Positions 6,062-24,824 of a stretch of DNA of 64,000 nucleotides are shown in pieces. The stretch is from Boudabousia marimammalium (GTDB lineage: Bacteria > Actinomycetota > Actinomycetes > Actinomycetales > Actinomycetaceae). Position numbers and translations under genes: made by a program. How positions within the stretch are numbered: position 1 is the stretch's first letter; the number at the start of each line of letters is the position of its first letter. The DNA lies in NCBI RefSeq assembly GCF_001936115.1, contig NZ_MPDM01000004.1:124001-188000 (forward strand). The letters are read 5' to 3'. The notes below the pieces were generated by a model. It was not told where the DNA came from, ran no database searches, and saw only the letters and a program-made list of their open reading frames with translations.

Positions 6062-7291
6062 GTGTTATCAAACTTAGTGCCGTTCAATATTTTCCCCTCT
6101 CCGCGTTCAGATCAGCGGGAGAATGACCCCTTGCCACCTCAGGGACGGCGAGGACGAGGACGCCTCGCCACCCTGCCGTTAATGACGGGTCTGACGGTAC
6201 TTGCATTGTCTTTATCCGGTTGCTCAACTCTTCGGTTTGAGACCAGTGGCGACCCGCTCACCCAGTTGGGACGCAATACGCAGATTCGTGAAGTAGTGGT
6301 GCGTACGGGCGTGCAATTGAATCAAAACTGTGCGGAGGTGACCTCTGCTTTGCCGCCAGAACAGGCCGGCCCAGCACAAAGGACCTGCGGGAATCTCTCT
6401 AGTGTGGTGCAGCAGCTGGGCGGAATCTGGGAAGGTAACTTGGAGAAGCCAGAGAATGAGCGGCTTCGTGACCCGCAACTGCCCAAGGACTCTCCAACGG
6501 CAGTAGCGATGAGCATGATGGAGGCGGCTGCAGCCGACCGTGATTTAGCTTTGGTGGCTTCGTATTCTCCGCTGGCAACGAACCTCAAGATTCAGCAGTG
6601 GCGCCTGCAGCTGATAGCCAGCCAGTTCGCTTCAGCAGCTGGCATCAACGCGGTTCCCCTCCCTGACTTGGGCAAAGGAAAGCCGGTTGATTACCAGACA
6701 CTACTGCCGGTTCACGATAAGGCGCGCGAACTGACTGAAGCTCAGCTTCCCATCTCCTCCCCCTACGTAACTTCCCCAGAGACTTCACCTGAAAGCCCTG
6801 CTGCGGGCTATCTAACCTACCTGCAGGTACGCGATGACGCCCGGGAGCTTGCCCGAGATACCGACCCCAAGCCTGAGCTGGTCAGCGTTGATGAACAAAT
6901 GCAGTTCCTGCATCAAAGCTGGTGGACGCTACAGACTTTGTTAGCCCGAAAAGATAAGCCGAGTGCTCAGGCTTTAGCTGCTTTAGATAAGCAGCTTAAA
7001 CTGCTGGAAGAGCGGATTGACAAACTGGAAGCTGAGGGCGCTCAGATGGAGCTCACGCTCTCTTATCCGCTCCCTGAAGCGTTAGCAGGGACTGAAGGTA
7101 CCGATGGGCAAATAGCCTATGTTCTGCGTTCCCTGGCAGCATTTGATCTCAAGCAGTTTGGGGCGACCCCAGTGAAGGAGATGGAACTGCGAACACAGAG
7201 AGCCGCAGATTTCGACCAAGCGATTGCGACTGCGGTAGCACTGGGGAAAGGAGCTGTGATTCTTGACTCACTAGCTCCAGCAGTCAAGTAA
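6062..7291 (+). CDS. Putative lipoprotein of unknown function next to rimP
   Basis: The 409-residue product has an arginine-rich stretch (RRGRGR) followed by a hydrophobic segment and a lipobox, LSLSGC (Cys near residue 54), so it is probably exported and lipid-anchored. The n-region is unusually long with the GTG start at 6062; no later start has a good signal peptide. The mature part is largely helical, with a predicted amphipathic stretch around residues 295-330. Actinobacteria often carry a DUF4439 ferritin-like gene divergent from rimP. This could be a distant member by position, but I cannot recognise the domain. Confidence 0.7.
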   Translation: MLSNLVPFNIFPSPRSDQRENDPLPPQGRRGRGRLATLPLMTGLTVLALSLSGCSTLRFETSGDPLTQLGRNTQIREVVVRTGVQLNQNCAEVTSALPPEQAGPAQRTCGNLSSVVQQLGGIWEGNLEKPENERLRDPQLPKDSPTAVAMSMMEAAAADRDLALVASYSPLATNLKIQQWRLQLIASQFASAAGINAVPLPDLGKGKPVDYQTLLPVHDKARELTEAQLPISSPYVTSPETSPESPAAGYLTYLQVRDDARELARDTDPKPELVSVDEQMQFLHQSWWTLQTLLARKDKPSAQALAALDKQLKLLEERIDKLEAEGAQMELTLSYPLPEALAGTEGTDGQIAYVLRSLAAFDLKQFGATPVKEMELRTQRAADFDQAIATAVALGKGAVILDSLAPAVK

Positions 7292-7318
7292 CTCCCCCGC
7301 ATAATCAGAAACACAAAT

Positions 7319-7346
7319 AAAGCCTCGGGCAACTGCCCGAGGCTTT
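7319..7346. terminator. Bidirectional intrinsic terminator at the left edge of the prophage
   Basis: A near-continuous inverted repeat (7319-7331 with 7334-7346) begins with AAA and ends with TTT. It terminates the lipoprotein gene on the plus strand. Before integration it would also have been the native terminator of tRNA-Asn on the minus strand. It now lies between host transcription and the integrase. Confidence 0.85.
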
Positions 7347-7351
7347 AATCT

Positions 7352-7390
7352 GCTCCCGCGGCAGGACTCGAACCTGCAACCGTCCGATTA
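7352..7390. repeat. attL core (39-bp direct repeat, remnant of tRNA-Asn 3' half)
   Basis: Identical to 24752-24790. It holds the original chromosomal 3' half of tRNA-Asn from the anticodon outwards, now detached from its 5' half. The flanks differ at once: T at 7351 against G at 24751, and T at 7391 against A at 24791. That fixes the core boundaries. Confidence 0.95.
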
Positions 7391-7435
7391 TCGGTCTAAA
7401 ACGCGCGTTTTGCGTTTGGCGGCTTAGACTTGACC

Positions 7436-8233
7436 ATGGTTAATACATGGAAAACTGTTCTTGGTCGGTACGTAGTTCACTTGCAATCTCTAGGACGGTC
7501 TAAGGGCACTATTCGCCTCCATGCTCATTACATCAAGCAGTTTGCCCGCCATGCTCCAGCTCCCGCGTTAATGACGGTGGAGGCCATCGAGCACACCCTC
7601 GCTAATCCTGAGTGGTCGCCTGAGACACGTAAAAGTGCTAGAAGCGTGGCAGTAGTGTTTTTCGGGTGGACGTTCAGACAAGGCATTACGAGAGATGTAG
7701 CGGGGCACTTAGATACTGTGAGGGTGCCTCAGGGTGTACCGCGTCCCGCGCCGGATAATATCACTGAGCGGGCTTTGAATCGTGCGCCGTTGCGTACTAG
7801 GCAGATGATTCTGTTAGCTAGGTACGGCGGCTTGCGCTGCTGTGAGATAGCGGTGGTGCACGGCGATGATTGGGACGGCCAAATGCTACTTGTCCATGGT
7901 AAGGGTGGTAAACGGCGGCTGGTGCCGATTTTGGACGAAAGACTCACTACTACGCTGGATTTACTGGAAGAGTTCCTATTTCCGGGAAAGATTGACGGCC
8001 ATCTTTCCGCGGATCGAGTGAATCGGATTATCTCTAACGCTTTGCCGGGTAAATGGACGGCTCATACTCTCAGACACCGTTATGCGACGGCCGCTTATGC
8101 TGGGACTAGAGACTTATTAGCGGTTGGCAAGTTGCTAGGGCACTCAAGGCCGGAGACTACCCAAAGATATGTGTTAGAGCCTCAAGACGCGCTATTAAAC
8201 GCGGCGAGAGCGGCGAGAGCGGCGAGCGCCTAG
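7436..8233 (+). CDS. int: Tyrosine recombinase (phage integrase)
   Basis: Catalyses site-specific integration and excision at tRNA-Asn. The 265-residue product has an N-terminal SAM-like DNA-binding domain (about 5-90) and a catalytic domain with the first Arg in YGGLRCCEI, Lys in GKGGKRR, HTLRHRYATAAY (H-x-x-R), the His of LLGHSRPETT and the tyrosine in TQRYV. The C-terminus is a run of Ala/Arg codons from a 9-bp microrepeat, ending ASA. I took the ATG at 7436; an in-frame TTG at 7430 is possible (GGCGG 7 bases upstream). In the excised circle it begins only 2-8 bases after the stop of the extended repressor frame. In the prophage it sits behind the host terminator at 7319-7346. Confidence 0.95.
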   Translation: MVNTWKTVLGRYVVHLQSLGRSKGTIRLHAHYIKQFARHAPAPALMTVEAIEHTLANPEWSPETRKSARSVAVVFFGWTFRQGITRDVAGHLDTVRVPQGVPRPAPDNITERALNRAPLRTRQMILLARYGGLRCCEIAVVHGDDWDGQMLLVHGKGGKRRLVPILDERLTTTLDLLEEFLFPGKIDGHLSADRVNRIISNALPGKWTAHTLRHRYATAAYAGTRDLLAVGKLLGHSRPETTQRYVLEPQDALLNAARAARAASA

Positions 8234-8234
8234 A

Positions 8235-8450
8235 CTAACTGATACCTGATTGCCGCTTGACGCGCGGGCGGTTGGCTTGCCATTCGTCGATTGTTTCGGG
8301 CAGCCACACTGACATGTCACGACCTTTTTGCGCAGATATCACGGCGTCAGGGGGTGGGAGCATGCCTTTTTGGATATACCCTGAGATAGTATTTACGGAC
8401 AAGCCGAGTCGTCGCGCTACTGCCGCTGCGGCTAGATATCTAGTTGGCAT
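8235..8450 (-). CDS. xis: Small helix-turn-helix protein, putative excisionase
   Basis: A 71-residue basic protein with a MerR/AlpA-type winged helix-turn-helix at the N-terminus: YLAAAAVARRLGLSVNTISG, then YIQKGMLPPPDAV, and a basic tail. It converges on int with one base between the stop codons, a common position for a directionality factor. Its start overlaps the end of the 51-residue membrane protein gene, so the two are co-translated. The assignment as excisionase is inferred from fold and place; a small transcription regulator is the alternative. Confidence 0.6.
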   Translation of the reverse strand: MPTRYLAAAAVARRLGLSVNTISGYIQKGMLPPPDAVISAQKGRDMSVWLPETIDEWQANRPRVKRQSGIS

Positions 8451-16359: not shown

Positions 16360-17916
16360 TTACTGGGTAATCTTGATGGCTTTGAACGCGGCTGGCACTG
16401 GCACGTAGTGAGCGGCATAACCGTAGACGGAGAATACGCCGGTAAGGTCGGCCACGTTCTCGTCTTGGAGACGCCACGGGGCTCCAGCGGATTCCTTTAC
16501 TCGGATAGCAGAGCGAGATACGGCGGCTGCCTTCTTGCCGGTTAGCGATGGAGTCCAGATAACGGGCACGCCCGCTAGCTCAGCTTTCGGTACTGAGATA
16601 GTCAGGGTGCCTAGCTTGTCAGTAGGTGATTCCGTGATCTGGAGTGCTGACTTGTGCTCCTTCAATGCGAACAGGCTCATAAAGACTTCGCGTGATACCA
16701 GCAGTGCGTCCAGGTTGTAGGGAGTATCGTCGAAAGACTCAACTGCGGTGAGCATGGTGTCAACCCAGGTAACGGGCGTAGCCTGGGCAAGGTTATCGAT
16801 GGTAGCCATCGGGTTCGTGACAGCGGTAGTGTAAGTGGATGCGACTAGTGCCTTTGTCGCCTTCTCGATTGCTAGAGCGTAGCGGCGTGCCATACGCTCG
16901 AAGTTGTCAGAGACGAGTGATTCGCTGGCACGCTGGATGGCCTGCTTGCTCATCGTGGTGTAACCGCCATAGGTTTCAACAGAGACTGATTTGATGGTGT
17001 CTTTGACTAGCTTGCCGTGAGGGAGGGTGTCGCCTTCTTTGGTCTGCTTAGCCACTGCCAGCTCGTCTTCGTGTTCCTGGACGTATTCGAAGGTCATTCC
17101 GGTAGCTGGTAGATCAGCAGAATGGGTGAACAGGTTTGTAAGCTTCTGTTTCTTTTCCATGTCTGCCTGTAGACGTTCTACCCAGATGGGCCGGGCGATA
17201 GAGATTTCCGAGGTTGTACCCTCGAAATCTCGGAGCGCTTCAGTGGCTCGTTCTTCACCTGCTGCGACTGCTCGCACGTAGGCGCCGAAAGAGCGGAATT
17301 GTGAGAGCGGGTGCTTCTCTTCCTGCCCGGAAGCAGAATTGGCGGCAAGCTGTTCCATCTGCAGCGCCAGCTTGTCAAGAGCAGAGCGCTGTGTCTCTAG
17401 CTCTTTTTGAATCTTTGGATCATCCATGGGGGCATTCCTTTCATTGGGTTCTTTTGCCTTGGAGCGGATATTGGTAACAGTTGTGTCTGGATAAGCGGGT
17501 ACTGGCACCAGAGAGACTTCACGAACTATCACGTCAGACATGTGTGTGATGTGAAGGTTGTCGTCTTCGTCGTATTCTTCGGTGTATTTGCCAGCCTCGA
17601 AGCCGATTGAACACTTGGAGAGCACTTCATCTTTGAGTAGCGTTAGTGTTTCGGCTGCGCGCTGGGTGGTCGAGAGTTTCCCGGTAATCCATAGGCCATC
17701 TTCTCGTGATTCCCATGAGGTGATACGCCCAATAGGTTCGTCATGGCAGTAAAGAATCGGGGCTGAGTCTGCGACAGTCACAGAACCCGGCGCAAATCGC
17801 TCGTATAACCATGGGTAAAGTCGTGTCTCAGAATCGAAAGGGACAGCTAGCGCGTCAAACTCTCGTGATTCGTCTTTAGGGGCTGCCGTTGCTGCAGCGC
17901 GGTATTCAAGACTCAT
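16360..17916 (-). CDS. Fused prohead protease and major capsid protein (HK97 fold)
   Basis: One 518-residue frame holds two usual head genes. Residues 1-155 are an S78-type prohead protease: catalytic His58 in YCHDEPIGR, Ser103 in KCSIGFE, and the VSLVPVPAYPDT strand. Residues 164-518 are a HK97-type capsid: a helical delta/scaffold region (164-235) and the capsid fold (about 240-510, with VETYGGYTTMSKQAIQRAS). An internal ATG at 17427 (Met164) has AAAGGA 8 bases upstream, so capsid could also be made alone as 355 residues. The 5' end overlaps portal by 11 bases. Confidence 0.92.
   Translation of the reverse strand: MSLEYRAAATAAPKDESREFDALAVPFDSETRLYPWLYERFAPGSVTVADSAPILYCHDEPIGRITSWESREDGLWITGKLSTTQRAAETLTLLKDEVLSKCSIGFEAGKYTEEYDEDDNLHITHMSDVIVREVSLVPVPAYPDTTVTNIRSKAKEPNERNAPMDDPKIQKELETQRSALDKLALQMEQLAANSASGQEEKHPLSQFRSFGAYVRAVAAGEERATEALRDFEGTTSEISIARPIWVERLQADMEKKQKLTNLFTHSADLPATGMTFEYVQEHEDELAVAKQTKEGDTLPHGKLVKDTIKSVSVETYGGYTTMSKQAIQRASESLVSDNFERMARRYALAIEKATKALVASTYTTAVTNPMATIDNLAQATPVTWVDTMLTAVESFDDTPYNLDALLVSREVFMSLFALKEHKSALQITESPTDKLGTLTISVPKAELAGVPVIWTPSLTGKKAAAVSRSAIRVKESAGAPWRLQDENVADLTGVFSVYGYAAHYVPVPAAFKAIKITQ
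17425..17441 (-). promoter_or_regulatory. Internal ribosome binding site and ATG for capsid alone
   Basis: AAAGGA (17436-17441) lies 8 bases before the in-frame ATG at 17427, exactly at the junction between the protease and the capsid delta region. This would allow excess capsid without protease. Confidence 0.5.
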
Positions 17917-23154: not shown

Positions 23155-23580
23155 TTAAACATTCCTTTTAGATAGTTGGGACACATAGTTAAGAAAGCCC
23201 TCTGCACGTTTACGATTCTGAGGGTGCCGCAACTTAGCTAATGCTTTTGATTCAACCTGCCTGACGCGCTCCTTTGTGACTCCGAAAACTTCACCAATGA
23301 ACTTCAGAGTTTGCGGCGGGTACCCAAGCAGTCCGTAACGCATAGCAAGCACCATGGCCTCACGCTCAGTCAGACAATCAATAAACCCTCTAATCTCAGG
23401 ATCTAAAATCTTAGGGCACGTGATTGCCAGACGATTCTCCAAGCCGTCAACGGCATAGCGCAGACCTTTAATCAGACCAAGCGCCAAATCAGGACGCTCA
23501 GCTTGCACCCGCTTTTCAACAAGGTTAATCTTCCGTCTAATCGCGGAAAACTGATTAGATTCAAAAGTTACTCCTGGCAT
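23155..23580 (-). CDS. Sigma-70 region 4-only protein, putative phage transcription regulator
   Basis: A 141-residue protein whose C-terminal half is a textbook sigma region 4: LTEREAMVLAMRYGLLGYPP, then IGEVFGVTKERVRQVESKALAKLRHP split over the helix-turn-helix. The N-terminal 70 residues have no recognisable region 2, so it should not recognise a -10 alone. Such proteins may act as late activators or redirect polymerase, as sigma-like late regulators do in some Gram-positive phages. Its ATG overlaps the preceding stop as TGATG. It precedes the replication and packaging genes. Confidence 0.8.
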   Translation of the reverse strand: MPGVTFESNQFSAIRRKINLVEKRVQAERPDLALGLIKGLRYAVDGLENRLAITCPKILDPEIRGFIDCLTEREAMVLAMRYGLLGYPPQTLKFIGEVFGVTKERVRQVESKALAKLRHPQNRKRAEGFLNYVSQLSKRNV

Positions 23581-23687: not shown

Positions 23688-24139
23688 TTTGATGTCCTTG
23701 AATCACCAAGGGCGGTACAATCACCGCATGGGCACTTTTGTAGATTTGCATTCAAAGATGTACGCATTATGGTTTCCACGAAACGAAGTAAAAGACGTGT
23801 ATTACGCGCTGATGTACGGCCGTGGCATTTTTGCTTTTGACATTCCCCGTGGTGCTGGCGGCCATTACGGGATTGATATTTTGAATCTGAAAGCGATTCG
23901 CCGGTGGACGCTGTGGGACTTTGATACTTGGCCCTCGACGCCAGAGCAGAGATTACTTGTTGTGGAGCTCGTATGGAATGACCATGACGGCTCTCTGGAG
24001 ATTCAGATGATTGAAGATGTTGAAGCGGCAAAAGCTGAATTCCTGTATGAGGATTAGCAGATTCTAAAACCTGAACGCTTACAACATTAGGCTCACCGCA
24101 AGCTTCACAAGTTGCAGTTATTACTAATTTTTTGCTCAT
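23684..24139 (-). CDS. Doubtful minus-strand frame coupled to the cro-like gene
   Basis: The ATG at 24139 overlaps the cro-like stop as ATGA, and the first 26 codons (MSKKLVITATCEACGEPNVV...) look like the start of a small CxxC protein. The remaining 125 codons lie opposite the moron-like gene and have a Ser/Arg/His-rich antisense composition. Either a short gene was cut by insertion of the plus-strand gene, or the whole frame is real and antisense. I favour the first. Confidence 0.25.
   Translation of the reverse strand: MSKKLVITATCEACGEPNVVSVQVLESANPHTGIQLLPLQHLQSSESPESRHGHSIRAPQQVISALASRAKYQSPTASTGESLSDSKYQSRNGRQHHGECQKQKCHGRTSARNTRLLLRFVETIMRTSLNANLQKCPCGDCTALGDSRTSK
23716..23721 (+). 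promoter_or_regulatory. -10 element of the moron-like gene
   Basis: TACAAT ends six bases before the ATG at 23728, so transcription would begin at or next to the start codon. The region at -35 (TGTCCT, 17-base spacing) is weak. Confidence 0.5.
23728..24057 (+). CDS. Moron-like protein of unknown function, opposite strand to the early operon
   Basis: A 109-residue protein starting MGTFVDLHSKMYALWFPRNE, rich in aromatic residues and with a normal composition, so this strand is probably the coding one. TACAAT lies at 23716-23721, six bases before the ATG, with no Shine-Dalgarno sequence: a leaderless promoter pattern, although the -35 is poor. The gene stands alone in the opposite direction inside the minus-strand early operon. 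That is the usual arrangement of morons, which are expressed from the prophage and often alter the host or exclude other phages. No homologue recognised. Confidence 0.65.
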   Translation: MGTFVDLHSKMYALWFPRNEVKDVYYALMYGRGIFAFDIPRGAGGHYGIDILNLKAIRRWTLWDFDTWPSTPEQRLLVVELVWNDHDGSLEIQMIEDVEAAKAEFLYED

Positions 24140-24354
24140 TCATCGTCTCCTTCGTCGATTAGCGGAGTGCTGAGCGCTCCGAGTTCAGCAAGTTTTTCTA
24201 CGTCGCCTAATGTCCACGAAATTTGTCCTTTTAAGCGGCGCGAGATTTGGGGCTGAGAAATGCCCAAAGACTGGCCAAGTGCCACCTGACGCACGCCAGT
24301 TGATTCAAGCCAGTCATTAACTCGGCTTGTAACGAGAGTGTTAATTTTGCCCAT
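24136..24354 (-). CDS. cro: Cro-like helix-turn-helix regulator
   Basis: A 72-residue protein, MGKINTLVTSRVNDWLESTG at the start, with a lambda-type helix-turn-helix: ALGQSLGISQPQISRRLKGQ, then WTLGDVEKLAELG. The domain is clearly related to the divergent repressor (same SQ/TQ..(I/V)SRR.(N/K)G...WTL pattern). I chose the ATG at 24354 because TATATT lies six bases before it (leaderless); a GTG at 24417 is in frame. It heads the minus-strand early operon, like Cro in other phages. Confidence 0.8.
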   Translation of the reverse strand: MGKINTLVTSRVNDWLESTGVRQVALGQSLGISQPQISRRLKGQISWTLGDVEKLAELGALSTPLIDEGDDE

Positions 24355-24452
24355 GCGCTCAATATATGCGTTTTGCGCAAGTTTTATGCGGGCGACACGC
24401 GGCGTGTCACGCTTCACTTGCCTAAGTTATGCGCGTGGCGCATACTGTAGGC
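24355..24452. promoter_or_regulatory. Immunity switch: divergent promoters and operator-like palindromes
   Basis: The 98 bases between cro and the repressor hold both promoters and three inverted repeats. Repressor promoter (plus): TTGCCT 24418-24423, 17-base spacer, CATACT 24441-24446. Cro promoter (minus): -10 TATATT at 24361-24366, weak -35. Palindromes: TTGCGCAA at 24373-24380; GACACGC-G-GCGTGTC at 24394-24408; TATGCGC-GTG-GCGCATA at 24428-24444, which covers the repressor -10. The last would fit autorepression. Confidence 0.7.
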
Positions 24453-24791
24453 ATGACTACATTAACTATTGCAAACACTGAAACGCCTACAATTTCAAGC
24501 ATTGTTGCCGCCAATATCCGCGCCGAAGCTGCACGGGCTGGAATAAATCAGGTCAAACTAGGCAGAATGTTAAATATGACACAATCGCAAGTTAGTAGGC
24601 GTTGGAACGGGTCATTAGTGTGGACTTTAGATGAGATGGGGGCAGTCGCACAGTTGTTAGGCGTTAGCGTGGCAGATTTAGTAACTCCACCGCGTGGAAA
24701 TAGCGGCAGATACACTAATCCCCCGGCACCTTACGGCACCGGGGGTGATTGGCTCCCGCGGCAGGACTCGAACCTGCAACCGTCCGATTAA
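24453..24791 (+). CDS. rep: Phage repressor whose C-terminus is encoded by the attachment site
   Basis: The 112-residue prophage form starts MTTLTIANTETPTISSIVAA and has a helix-turn-helix at about residues 38-60 (KLGRMLNMTQSQVSRRWNGS). The frame then enters attR, where it reads antisense tRNA-Asn (WLPRQDSNLQPSD) and stops at TAA 24789-24791, whose last A is the first host base. In the circular phage genome the base after the core is T, so TAA becomes TAT and the frame continues for 12 codons (YRSKTRVLRLAA) to a TAG at 7425-7427, just before int. The ATG at 24453 lies six bases after CATACT and has no Shine-Dalgarno. Confidence 0.85.
   Translation: MTTLTIANTETPTISSIVAANIRAEAARAGINQVKLGRMLNMTQSQVSRRWNGSLVWTLDEMGAVAQLLGVSVADLVTPPRGNSGRYTNPPAPYGTGGDWLPRQDSNLQPSD
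24720..24745. terminator. GC-rich hairpin inside the 3' end of rep, beside tRNA-Asn
   Basis: A 7-bp stem CCCCCGG/CCGGGGG (24720-24726 with 24739-24745) with a 12-base loop containing a GGCACC direct repeat. It lies 4 bases beyond the CCA end of tRNA-Asn on the minus strand and may replace the native terminator left at attL. No T-run follows, so termination is uncertain. Confidence 0.35.
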
Positions 24792-24824
24792 CAGTCGGAT
24801 GCTCTACCATTGAGCTACGCGGGA
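24750..24824 (-). tRNA. tRNA-Asn (GTT), rebuilt by the prophage
   Basis: A full cloverleaf: acceptor TCCCGCG/CGCGGGA, anticodon loop CTGTTAA with GTT at 24790-24792, T arm GTTCGAGTC, discriminator G, and encoded CCA. The 3' half, from the last anticodon base outward, is the phage-borne copy of the 39-bp core; the 5' half is host DNA. The original 3' end at attL continues GCA instead of GCCA, so the encoded CCA came with the phage. Confidence 0.95.
24752..24790. repeat. attR core (39-bp direct repeat)
   Basis: Perfect copy of 7352-7390. It serves at once as tRNA-Asn 3' half (minus strand) and as the last codons of the repressor (plus strand). Confidence 0.95.

What the first reader, a model, noticed from the sequence alone, without database searches (positions are those of the whole stretch)
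7391..7436. In the circular phage, rep and int form one coupled unit that integration splits
After excision the extended rep frame ends at 7425-7427, and int starts at TTG 7430 or ATG 7436, 2 to 8 bases later on the same strand. Int has no promoter of its own that I can see at attL. In the prophage it is cut off from the rep promoter and sits behind a strong bidirectional host terminator (7319-7346). Integrase would thus be made only in the infecting form, giving a built-in decision loop.
Basis: partly seen in the sequence, partly recalled or inferred. Interest (0 to 1): 0.75.

Follow-up and report, generated by a model that had tools for sequence, protein, structure and literature searches.

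The report
Prophage switch: integration splits repressor-integrase operon
A small (17.4 kb) prophage in an Actinomycetaceae bacterium carries the already known "integration-dependent immunity" switch, in which inserting the phage into a tRNA gene trims a degradation tag off its repressor and at the same time cuts the integrase gene away from the repressor's promoter; it is a clear new example of a known system.

Summary
A 39-bp core (7352-7390 = 24752-24790) bounds a 17,400-bp prophage in a host tRNA-Asn. Joining the phage ends extends rep (24453-) from 112 to 124 aa, through the core to TAG 7425-7427, ending ...VLRLAA. The only in-frame int starts are TTG 7430 and ATG 7436. In the prophage, the first host base after the core turns TAT into TAA. 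This is the anatomy of mycobacteriophage BPs-type integration-dependent immunity, whose published description already has rep and int cotranscribed from Prep with attP inside rep. Four relatives rebuilt here (including Mobiluncus porci) show the same layout. So the coupling and its splitting are real but known; this is a new member in a family where I found no published case. "Integrase only in the infecting form" is partly supported. No int promoter is seen at attL, and published RNA-seq of an integration-dependent M. abscessus prophage found only the repressor expressed. But related prophages excise spontaneously, so some Int must be made, and the terminator has a T-tract only on the minus strand. 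A palindrome and a 10-mer shared with the cro-rep control region, between core and int, are unproven leads.

The parts
6062..7291 (+). host gene (putative lipoprotein) reading toward int
   Evidence: ORF; homologue left of the unoccupied tRNA-Asn in congener G002 (L042)
7318..7347 (.). host hairpin/terminator between the host gene and attL; T-tract only on the minus strand
7352..7390 (.). attL common core (39 bp, 3' part of tRNA-Asn on the minus strand)
7391..7427 (+). 3' end of the viral-form rep (12 extra codons, YRSKTRVLRLAA, stop TAG 7425-7427)
   Evidence: relatives
7398..7411 (.). perfect palindrome AAAACGCGCGTTTT; 10-mer GCGTTTTGCG at 7405 recurs once in the window, in the cro-rep region (24368)
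   Evidence: function unproven
7430..8233 (+). int, tyrosine integrase without arm-binding domain (TTG 7430 or ATG 7436)
   Evidence: PF00589 5.8e-16; PHROG integrase 1e-23
8200..8230 (+). Ala-rich Int C-terminus (...AARAARAASA) encoded by a 9-bp repeat GCGGCGAGA
24136..24354 (-). cro-like HTH gene, divergent from rep
   Evidence: BetR 4.8e-7; PHROG repressor 6.5e-7
24355..24452 (.). cro-rep control region with palindromes 24394-24408 and 24428-24444 and a candidate leaderless Prep (TTGCCT 24418-24423, 17 bp, CATACT 24441-24446, ATG 24453 at about +1)
   Evidence: palindromes; promoter by eye, below the 9/12 scan threshold
24453..24791 (+). rep, prophage form (112 aa); stop TAA made by the first host base after the core
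24720..24745 (-). phage-borne hairpin that may replace the tRNA's lost terminator (11-bp stem on the minus strand)
   Evidence: -24.7 kcal/mol, z -4.7
24752..24790 (.). attR common core
24750..24824 (-). restored host tRNA-Asn(GTT) across attR
   Evidence: ARAGORN

Best explanation
This is an integration-dependent immunity cassette of the mycobacteriophage BPs type. In the circular phage, rep and int lie on one strand 2-8 nt apart and are inferred to be read as one mRNA from Prep beside cro. The viral Rep (124 aa) ends in an ssrA-like tag (RLAA) and is inferred to be degraded, while Int is made by read-through, probably helped by re-initiation after the rep stop. Int recombines attP, inside rep, with the host tRNA-Asn. 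The first host base then makes a stop codon (TAT to TAA), so a shorter, untagged, inferred stable Rep shuts off the lytic promoter. The same event moves int about 17 kb from Prep and behind a host terminator, so the enzyme that could reverse the reaction is inferred to be mostly off. Shown from sequence: the joins, frames, stop, tag, tRNA and spacing. Inferred: transcription, proteolysis, repression and int silence.
For: Exact junction and frames; tRNA-Asn restored; unoccupied site in a congener with a homologous gene on each side of an intact tRNA-Asn. Rep and Cro are HTH proteins in divergent order, and Int is a tyrosine recombinase. The nearest phage integrases are from Gordonia phages SallySpecial, Rahul, McGonagall and Wizard; in the 13 free phages with a recognised core it lies inside rep, and most of these reps end in -AA or -VA. 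McGonagall, GMA5 and Wizard are published as integration-dependent (PMC5559632). Four other prophages rebuilt here show the same host-made stop and longer viral rep, ending LAA, VAA, RAA, and one untagged HEK in Mobiluncus porci. Frames end in -AA in 22/47 loci vs 11.6% expected. int begins within about -12 to +14 nt of the rep stop in roughly half of the 29 relatives tabulated. Mechanism: PMC4557955, PMC9262239. Int silent in such a lysogen: PMC8092301.
Against: No transcript or protein data exist for this phage. Int ends -ASA, not -AA. In Mobiluncus porci the viral rep has no -AA tag, and a Schaalia relative shows no tagged frame and no second core copy. Prep was placed by eye and falls below the scan threshold. 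Spontaneous excision in related systems (PMC9934374) means int cannot be fully silent in lysogens.
Confidence: 0.87

Rival explanations
1. Rep-int is split as described, but int is still expressed in the lysogen, by read-through of the host gene 6062-7291 past an imperfect terminator or from a weak promoter at attL, so integration does not turn int off.
For: The host gene points at int; the hairpin has no T-tract in that direction; related integration-dependent prophages excise spontaneously in culture (PMC9934374).
Against: Strong hairpin in between; no promoter-like site at the scan threshold; RNA-seq of prophiGD21-1 shows the repressor as the only expressed prophage gene (PMC8092301).
Confidence: 0.25
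2. The extension of rep past the core is an accident of an ORF running through tRNA sequence; the 112-aa form is the designed protein, and int is regulated independently.
For: The peptide of the core (PRQDSNLQPSD) is what translated antisense tRNA sequence gives; a random any-of-three-frames -AA ending occurs 11.6% of the time.
Against: -AA endings in 22/47 loci; attP lies in rep in many free phages; host-made stop in five of five rebuilt prophages; demonstrated function in BPs (PMC4557955).
Confidence: 0.05
3. The prophage is a decayed remnant, so the arrangement has no present function.
For: No induction data; very small genome.
Against: 17.4 kb is normal for small actinobacteriophages (Gordonia cluster CW 17.1-17.7 kb, PMC5559632; nearest terminases from 14.8-15.6 kb Arthrobacter phages). 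Open frames for terminase, portal, protease-capsid fusion, tape measure, endolysin, int, rep and cro are present without internal stops, and both att cores are identical.
Confidence: 0.08

Closest known systems
Integration-dependent immunity of mycobacteriophages BPs, Brujita and Charlie (clusters G, I, N, P; Broussard et al. 2013, described in PMC4557955 and PMC9262239)
   Same: rep and int same strand, cotranscribed from Prep; attP inside rep; host base at the junction makes the rep stop; viral Rep carries an ssrA-like C-terminus; attB in a tRNA gene; Int without arm-type sites; divergent cro-like gene.
   Different: Actinomycetaceae host, tRNA-Asn rather than tRNA-Arg, 12-residue extension (33 in BPs), Int ends -ASA; nothing tested experimentally here.
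Small-genome Gordonia phages (McGonagall, Jeanie, GMA5, GRU3; PMC5559632; also SallySpecial and Rahul)
   Same: Genome size 16-17.7 kb, Int 39-42% identical, core inside rep, -AA tags on Rep, int downstream on the same strand.
   Different: Cluster CW uses tRNA-Lys; gaps between rep and int range from 14 to over 300 nt.
Bifidobacterium prophages Bb423phi2 and 689b-1 (PMC6109161)
   Same: Small prophages in a tRNA gene with int at attL, rep at attR and a viral rep with an ssrA-like extension.
   Different: tRNA-Met; 18-residue extension; different host order.
M. abscessus prophages MabB, MabC, MabK, MabN (PMC8092301)
   Same: attP in rep; stop made at the junction (by the first bacterial base in MabC/K/N/O); lysogen RNA-seq of a MabB prophage shows only the repressor.
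   Different: 40-76 kb prophages; several lack ssrA-like tags.

Membership tests
Integration-dependent immunity (BPs type) | attP common core lies within the rep reading frame | tested here: met
   Rep frame 24453-24790|7391-7427 spans the 39-bp core
Integration-dependent immunity (BPs type) | integration gives a shorter Rep by a stop at the host junction | tested here: met
   TAT (phage) becomes TAA with the first host base; 124 to 112 aa
Integration-dependent immunity (BPs type) | viral Rep ends in an ssrA-like tag | tested here: met
   ...VLRLAA; motif only, degradation not tested
Integration-dependent immunity (BPs type) | int directly downstream of rep on the same strand | tested here: met
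   2 or 8 nt after the rep stop
Integration-dependent immunity (BPs type) | rep and int cotranscribed from Prep | not testable with these tools
   needs RNA; candidate Prep by eye only
Integration-dependent immunity (BPs type) | attB overlaps a host tRNA gene that is restored | tested here: met
   tRNA-Asn 24750-24824 intact at attR; unoccupied site in congener G002
Integration-dependent immunity (BPs type) | Int carries a C-terminal degradation tag | tested here: inconclusive
   Int ends AARAASA; 31 of 79 relatives end -AA, 48 of 79 end in -A
Integration-dependent immunity (BPs type) | armless tyrosine integrase, no evident recombination directionality factor | tested here: inconclusive
   Int is 265 aa with no room for an arm-binding domain; a 71-aa HTH ORF at 8235-8450 weakly matches excisionases (1.6e-6)
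Integration-dependent immunity (BPs type) | divergent rep and cro-like genes with an operator region | tested here: met
   cro-like 24136-24354 minus, rep plus, palindromes between
Integration-dependent immunity (BPs type) | prophage Rep gives immunity, viral Rep does not | not testable with these tools
   needs immunity and half-life assays

The most novel reading that the evidence does not exclude
The 46 bp between core and int hold a second lock on int: an operator-like site (palindrome 7398-7411, with GCGTTTTGCG shared only with the cro-rep control region) and an RNA hairpin over the weak int start region. Rep or Cro could then block read-through into int in the lysogen, and int would be translated only when ribosomes finish the viral rep. 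This would make int silence active, not just a result of separation.
Probability: 0.1. Interest if true: 0.5.

Novelty: new member of a known kind. Interest (0 to 1): 0.3.

Why it matters
It extends a well-studied genetic switch to Actinomycetaceae (this host, a Mobiluncus porci prophage with the same tRNA-Asn target, and another family member), and shows that the host-made stop codon and a tight rep-int junction recur in separately sampled prophages of the order. The open question it makes testable is how Int is made for excision when integration removes its promoter.

Tried and rejected
An Int-promoter scan at attL found nothing on the + strand. The wide Int alignment A1 was too divergent for collection scans; a narrower one worked. 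One search read minus-strand loci in the wrong orientation and was redone. The Mobiluncus -TVAA frame seen at attL turned out not to be the rep frame once attP was rebuilt, so any-of-three-frame counts overstate single cases and must be read against the 11.6% null. The hairpin over the int start is weak statistically (18/200 shuffles for 7391-7436, 4/200 for 7388-7460). The 10-mer shared between P' arm and cro-rep region (2/200 shuffles) has no counterpart in 11 relatives, so it is kept only as a lead. Close relatives of rep were found in viral contigs only as this same prophage. The original Mol Cell 2013 paper is not held.

Full report
What is there. The window holds a 17.4-kb prophage between two identical 39-bp cores, 7352-7390 and 24752-24790, 17,400 bp apart. 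The core is the 3' part of a tRNA-Asn on the minus strand, and the intact tRNA is restored at attR (24750-24824). In a congener (G002, L042) homologues of the left and right flanking genes lie on either side of an unoccupied tRNA-Asn, which supports the assigned attB. Two hosts of related prophages in the same family can be named by matching contig lengths and positions: Schaalia sp. ORNL0103 (G012) and Mobiluncus porci (G022), so the host is taken to be Actinomycetaceae.

The junction. Rep (ATG 24453) is a short HTH protein (PHROG transcriptional repressor 1e-14; BetR 8e-7) with a divergent cro-like gene (24136-24354). In the prophage it stops at TAA 24789-24791, whose last A is the first host base after the core. 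Joining the phage ends replaces TAA by TAT and extends Rep by 12 residues, YRSKTRVLRLAA, to TAG 7425-7427. Int, a tyrosine recombinase of 265-267 aa, has only two in-frame starts, TTG 7430 and ATG 7436.

Is it more than chance? In free phages with related integrases (Gordonia McGonagall, SallySpecial, Rahul, Wizard, GMA5, Bakery, Santhid, Eyre; mycobacteriophages Typha, CLED96, Babsiella, Malithi, Butters) the reversed tRNA T-loop motif falls inside annotated rep, with int downstream on the same strand, and most of these reps end in -AA or -VA. Among 79 non-redundant integrase loci, 47 have such a core within 600 bp upstream; 22 of these have a frame ending in -AA against 11.6% at random positions in the same DNA (P about 2e-9, uncorrected for phylogeny). 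31 of 79 integrases themselves end in -AA. Four more prophages were rebuilt at attP: G039, G010, G048 and Mobiluncus porci. In every one, the host base(s) right after the core make the rep stop, and the phage form is longer, ending LAA, VAA, RAA and (Mobiluncus) HEK. The int start lies within roughly -12 to +14 nt of the rep stop in about half of the 29 tabulated relatives and further away in the rest, so tight spacing is common but not required.

What it is. This is the integration-dependent immunity system described for BPs and relatives: rep and int cotranscribed from Prep, attP in rep, ssrA-like tag on viral Rep, tag lost on integration, tRNA attB, and a stop formed by the host base at the junction (PMC4557955; PMC9262239). 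It is already reported in Gordonia phages including 17-kb ones (PMC5559632), in Bifidobacterium prophages (PMC6109161) and in M. abscessus (PMC8092301). No held paper combines the phrase "integration-dependent immunity" with Actinomyces; other Actinomycetaceae genera were not searched for in papers.

Is int made only in the infecting form? Supporting: no promoter-like site upstream of int at attL, a strong hairpin before it, a weak Shine-Dalgarno for either start (-4.1 kcal/mol against a median of -5.7 for the phage's other genes), and RNA-seq of M. [quoted passage not shown] Limiting: the hairpin carries a T-tract only on the minus strand, so host read-through is possible; and MabB and MabN prophages excise spontaneously in culture (PMC9934374), so Int must be made in some lysogenic cells. 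[quoted passage not shown] Cutting int from its promoter would then act as a latch against reversal. This last step is inference.

Further features, not proven. A candidate leaderless Prep (TTGCCT, 17 bp, CATACT, ATG) was placed by eye and overlaps the palindrome 24428-24444. The P' arm carries a perfect palindrome AAAACGCGCGTTTT (7398-7411) and a 10-mer that recurs only in the cro-rep region (2 of 200 shuffles), absent from 11 relatives. A hairpin covers the int start region, of marginal significance. The phage supplies a strong minus-strand hairpin at 24720-24745, which may terminate the tRNA transcript that integration separated from its own terminator.

Verdict. This is a new member of a known kind.

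Noticed in passing
8235-8450 (-): 71-aa HTH ORF convergent with int, matching a PHROG DNA-binding family (5.7e-20) and weakly excisionases (1.6e-6): a possible directionality factor, which systems of this kind are said to lack.
   Followed up: partly
8200-8230: The Int C-terminus (AARAARAASA) is encoded by a 9-bp in-frame repeat GCGGCGAGA; length variation could tune a degradation signal.
   Followed up: no
24720-24745: Strong hairpin on the minus strand just downstream of the restored tRNA-Asn; it looks like a phage-supplied replacement terminator lying inside rep.
   Followed up: partly
7398-7414 and 24368-24377: The 10-mer GCGTTTTGCG occurs only twice in the 64-kb window, beside int and in the cro-rep control region.
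   Followed up: yes
L170, L171 (Mobiluncus porci): Related prophage in the same tRNA-Asn; its viral rep extension lacks an -AA tag but is strongly hydrophobic (LLVLLILV), perhaps another kind of degradation signal.
   Followed up: partly
23155-23580 (-): Phage-encoded protein with sigma-70 region 4 (2e-17): possible late-gene regulator of this small phage.
   Followed up: no
16360-17916 (-): Prohead protease and major capsid protein appear fused in one reading frame.
   Followed up: no
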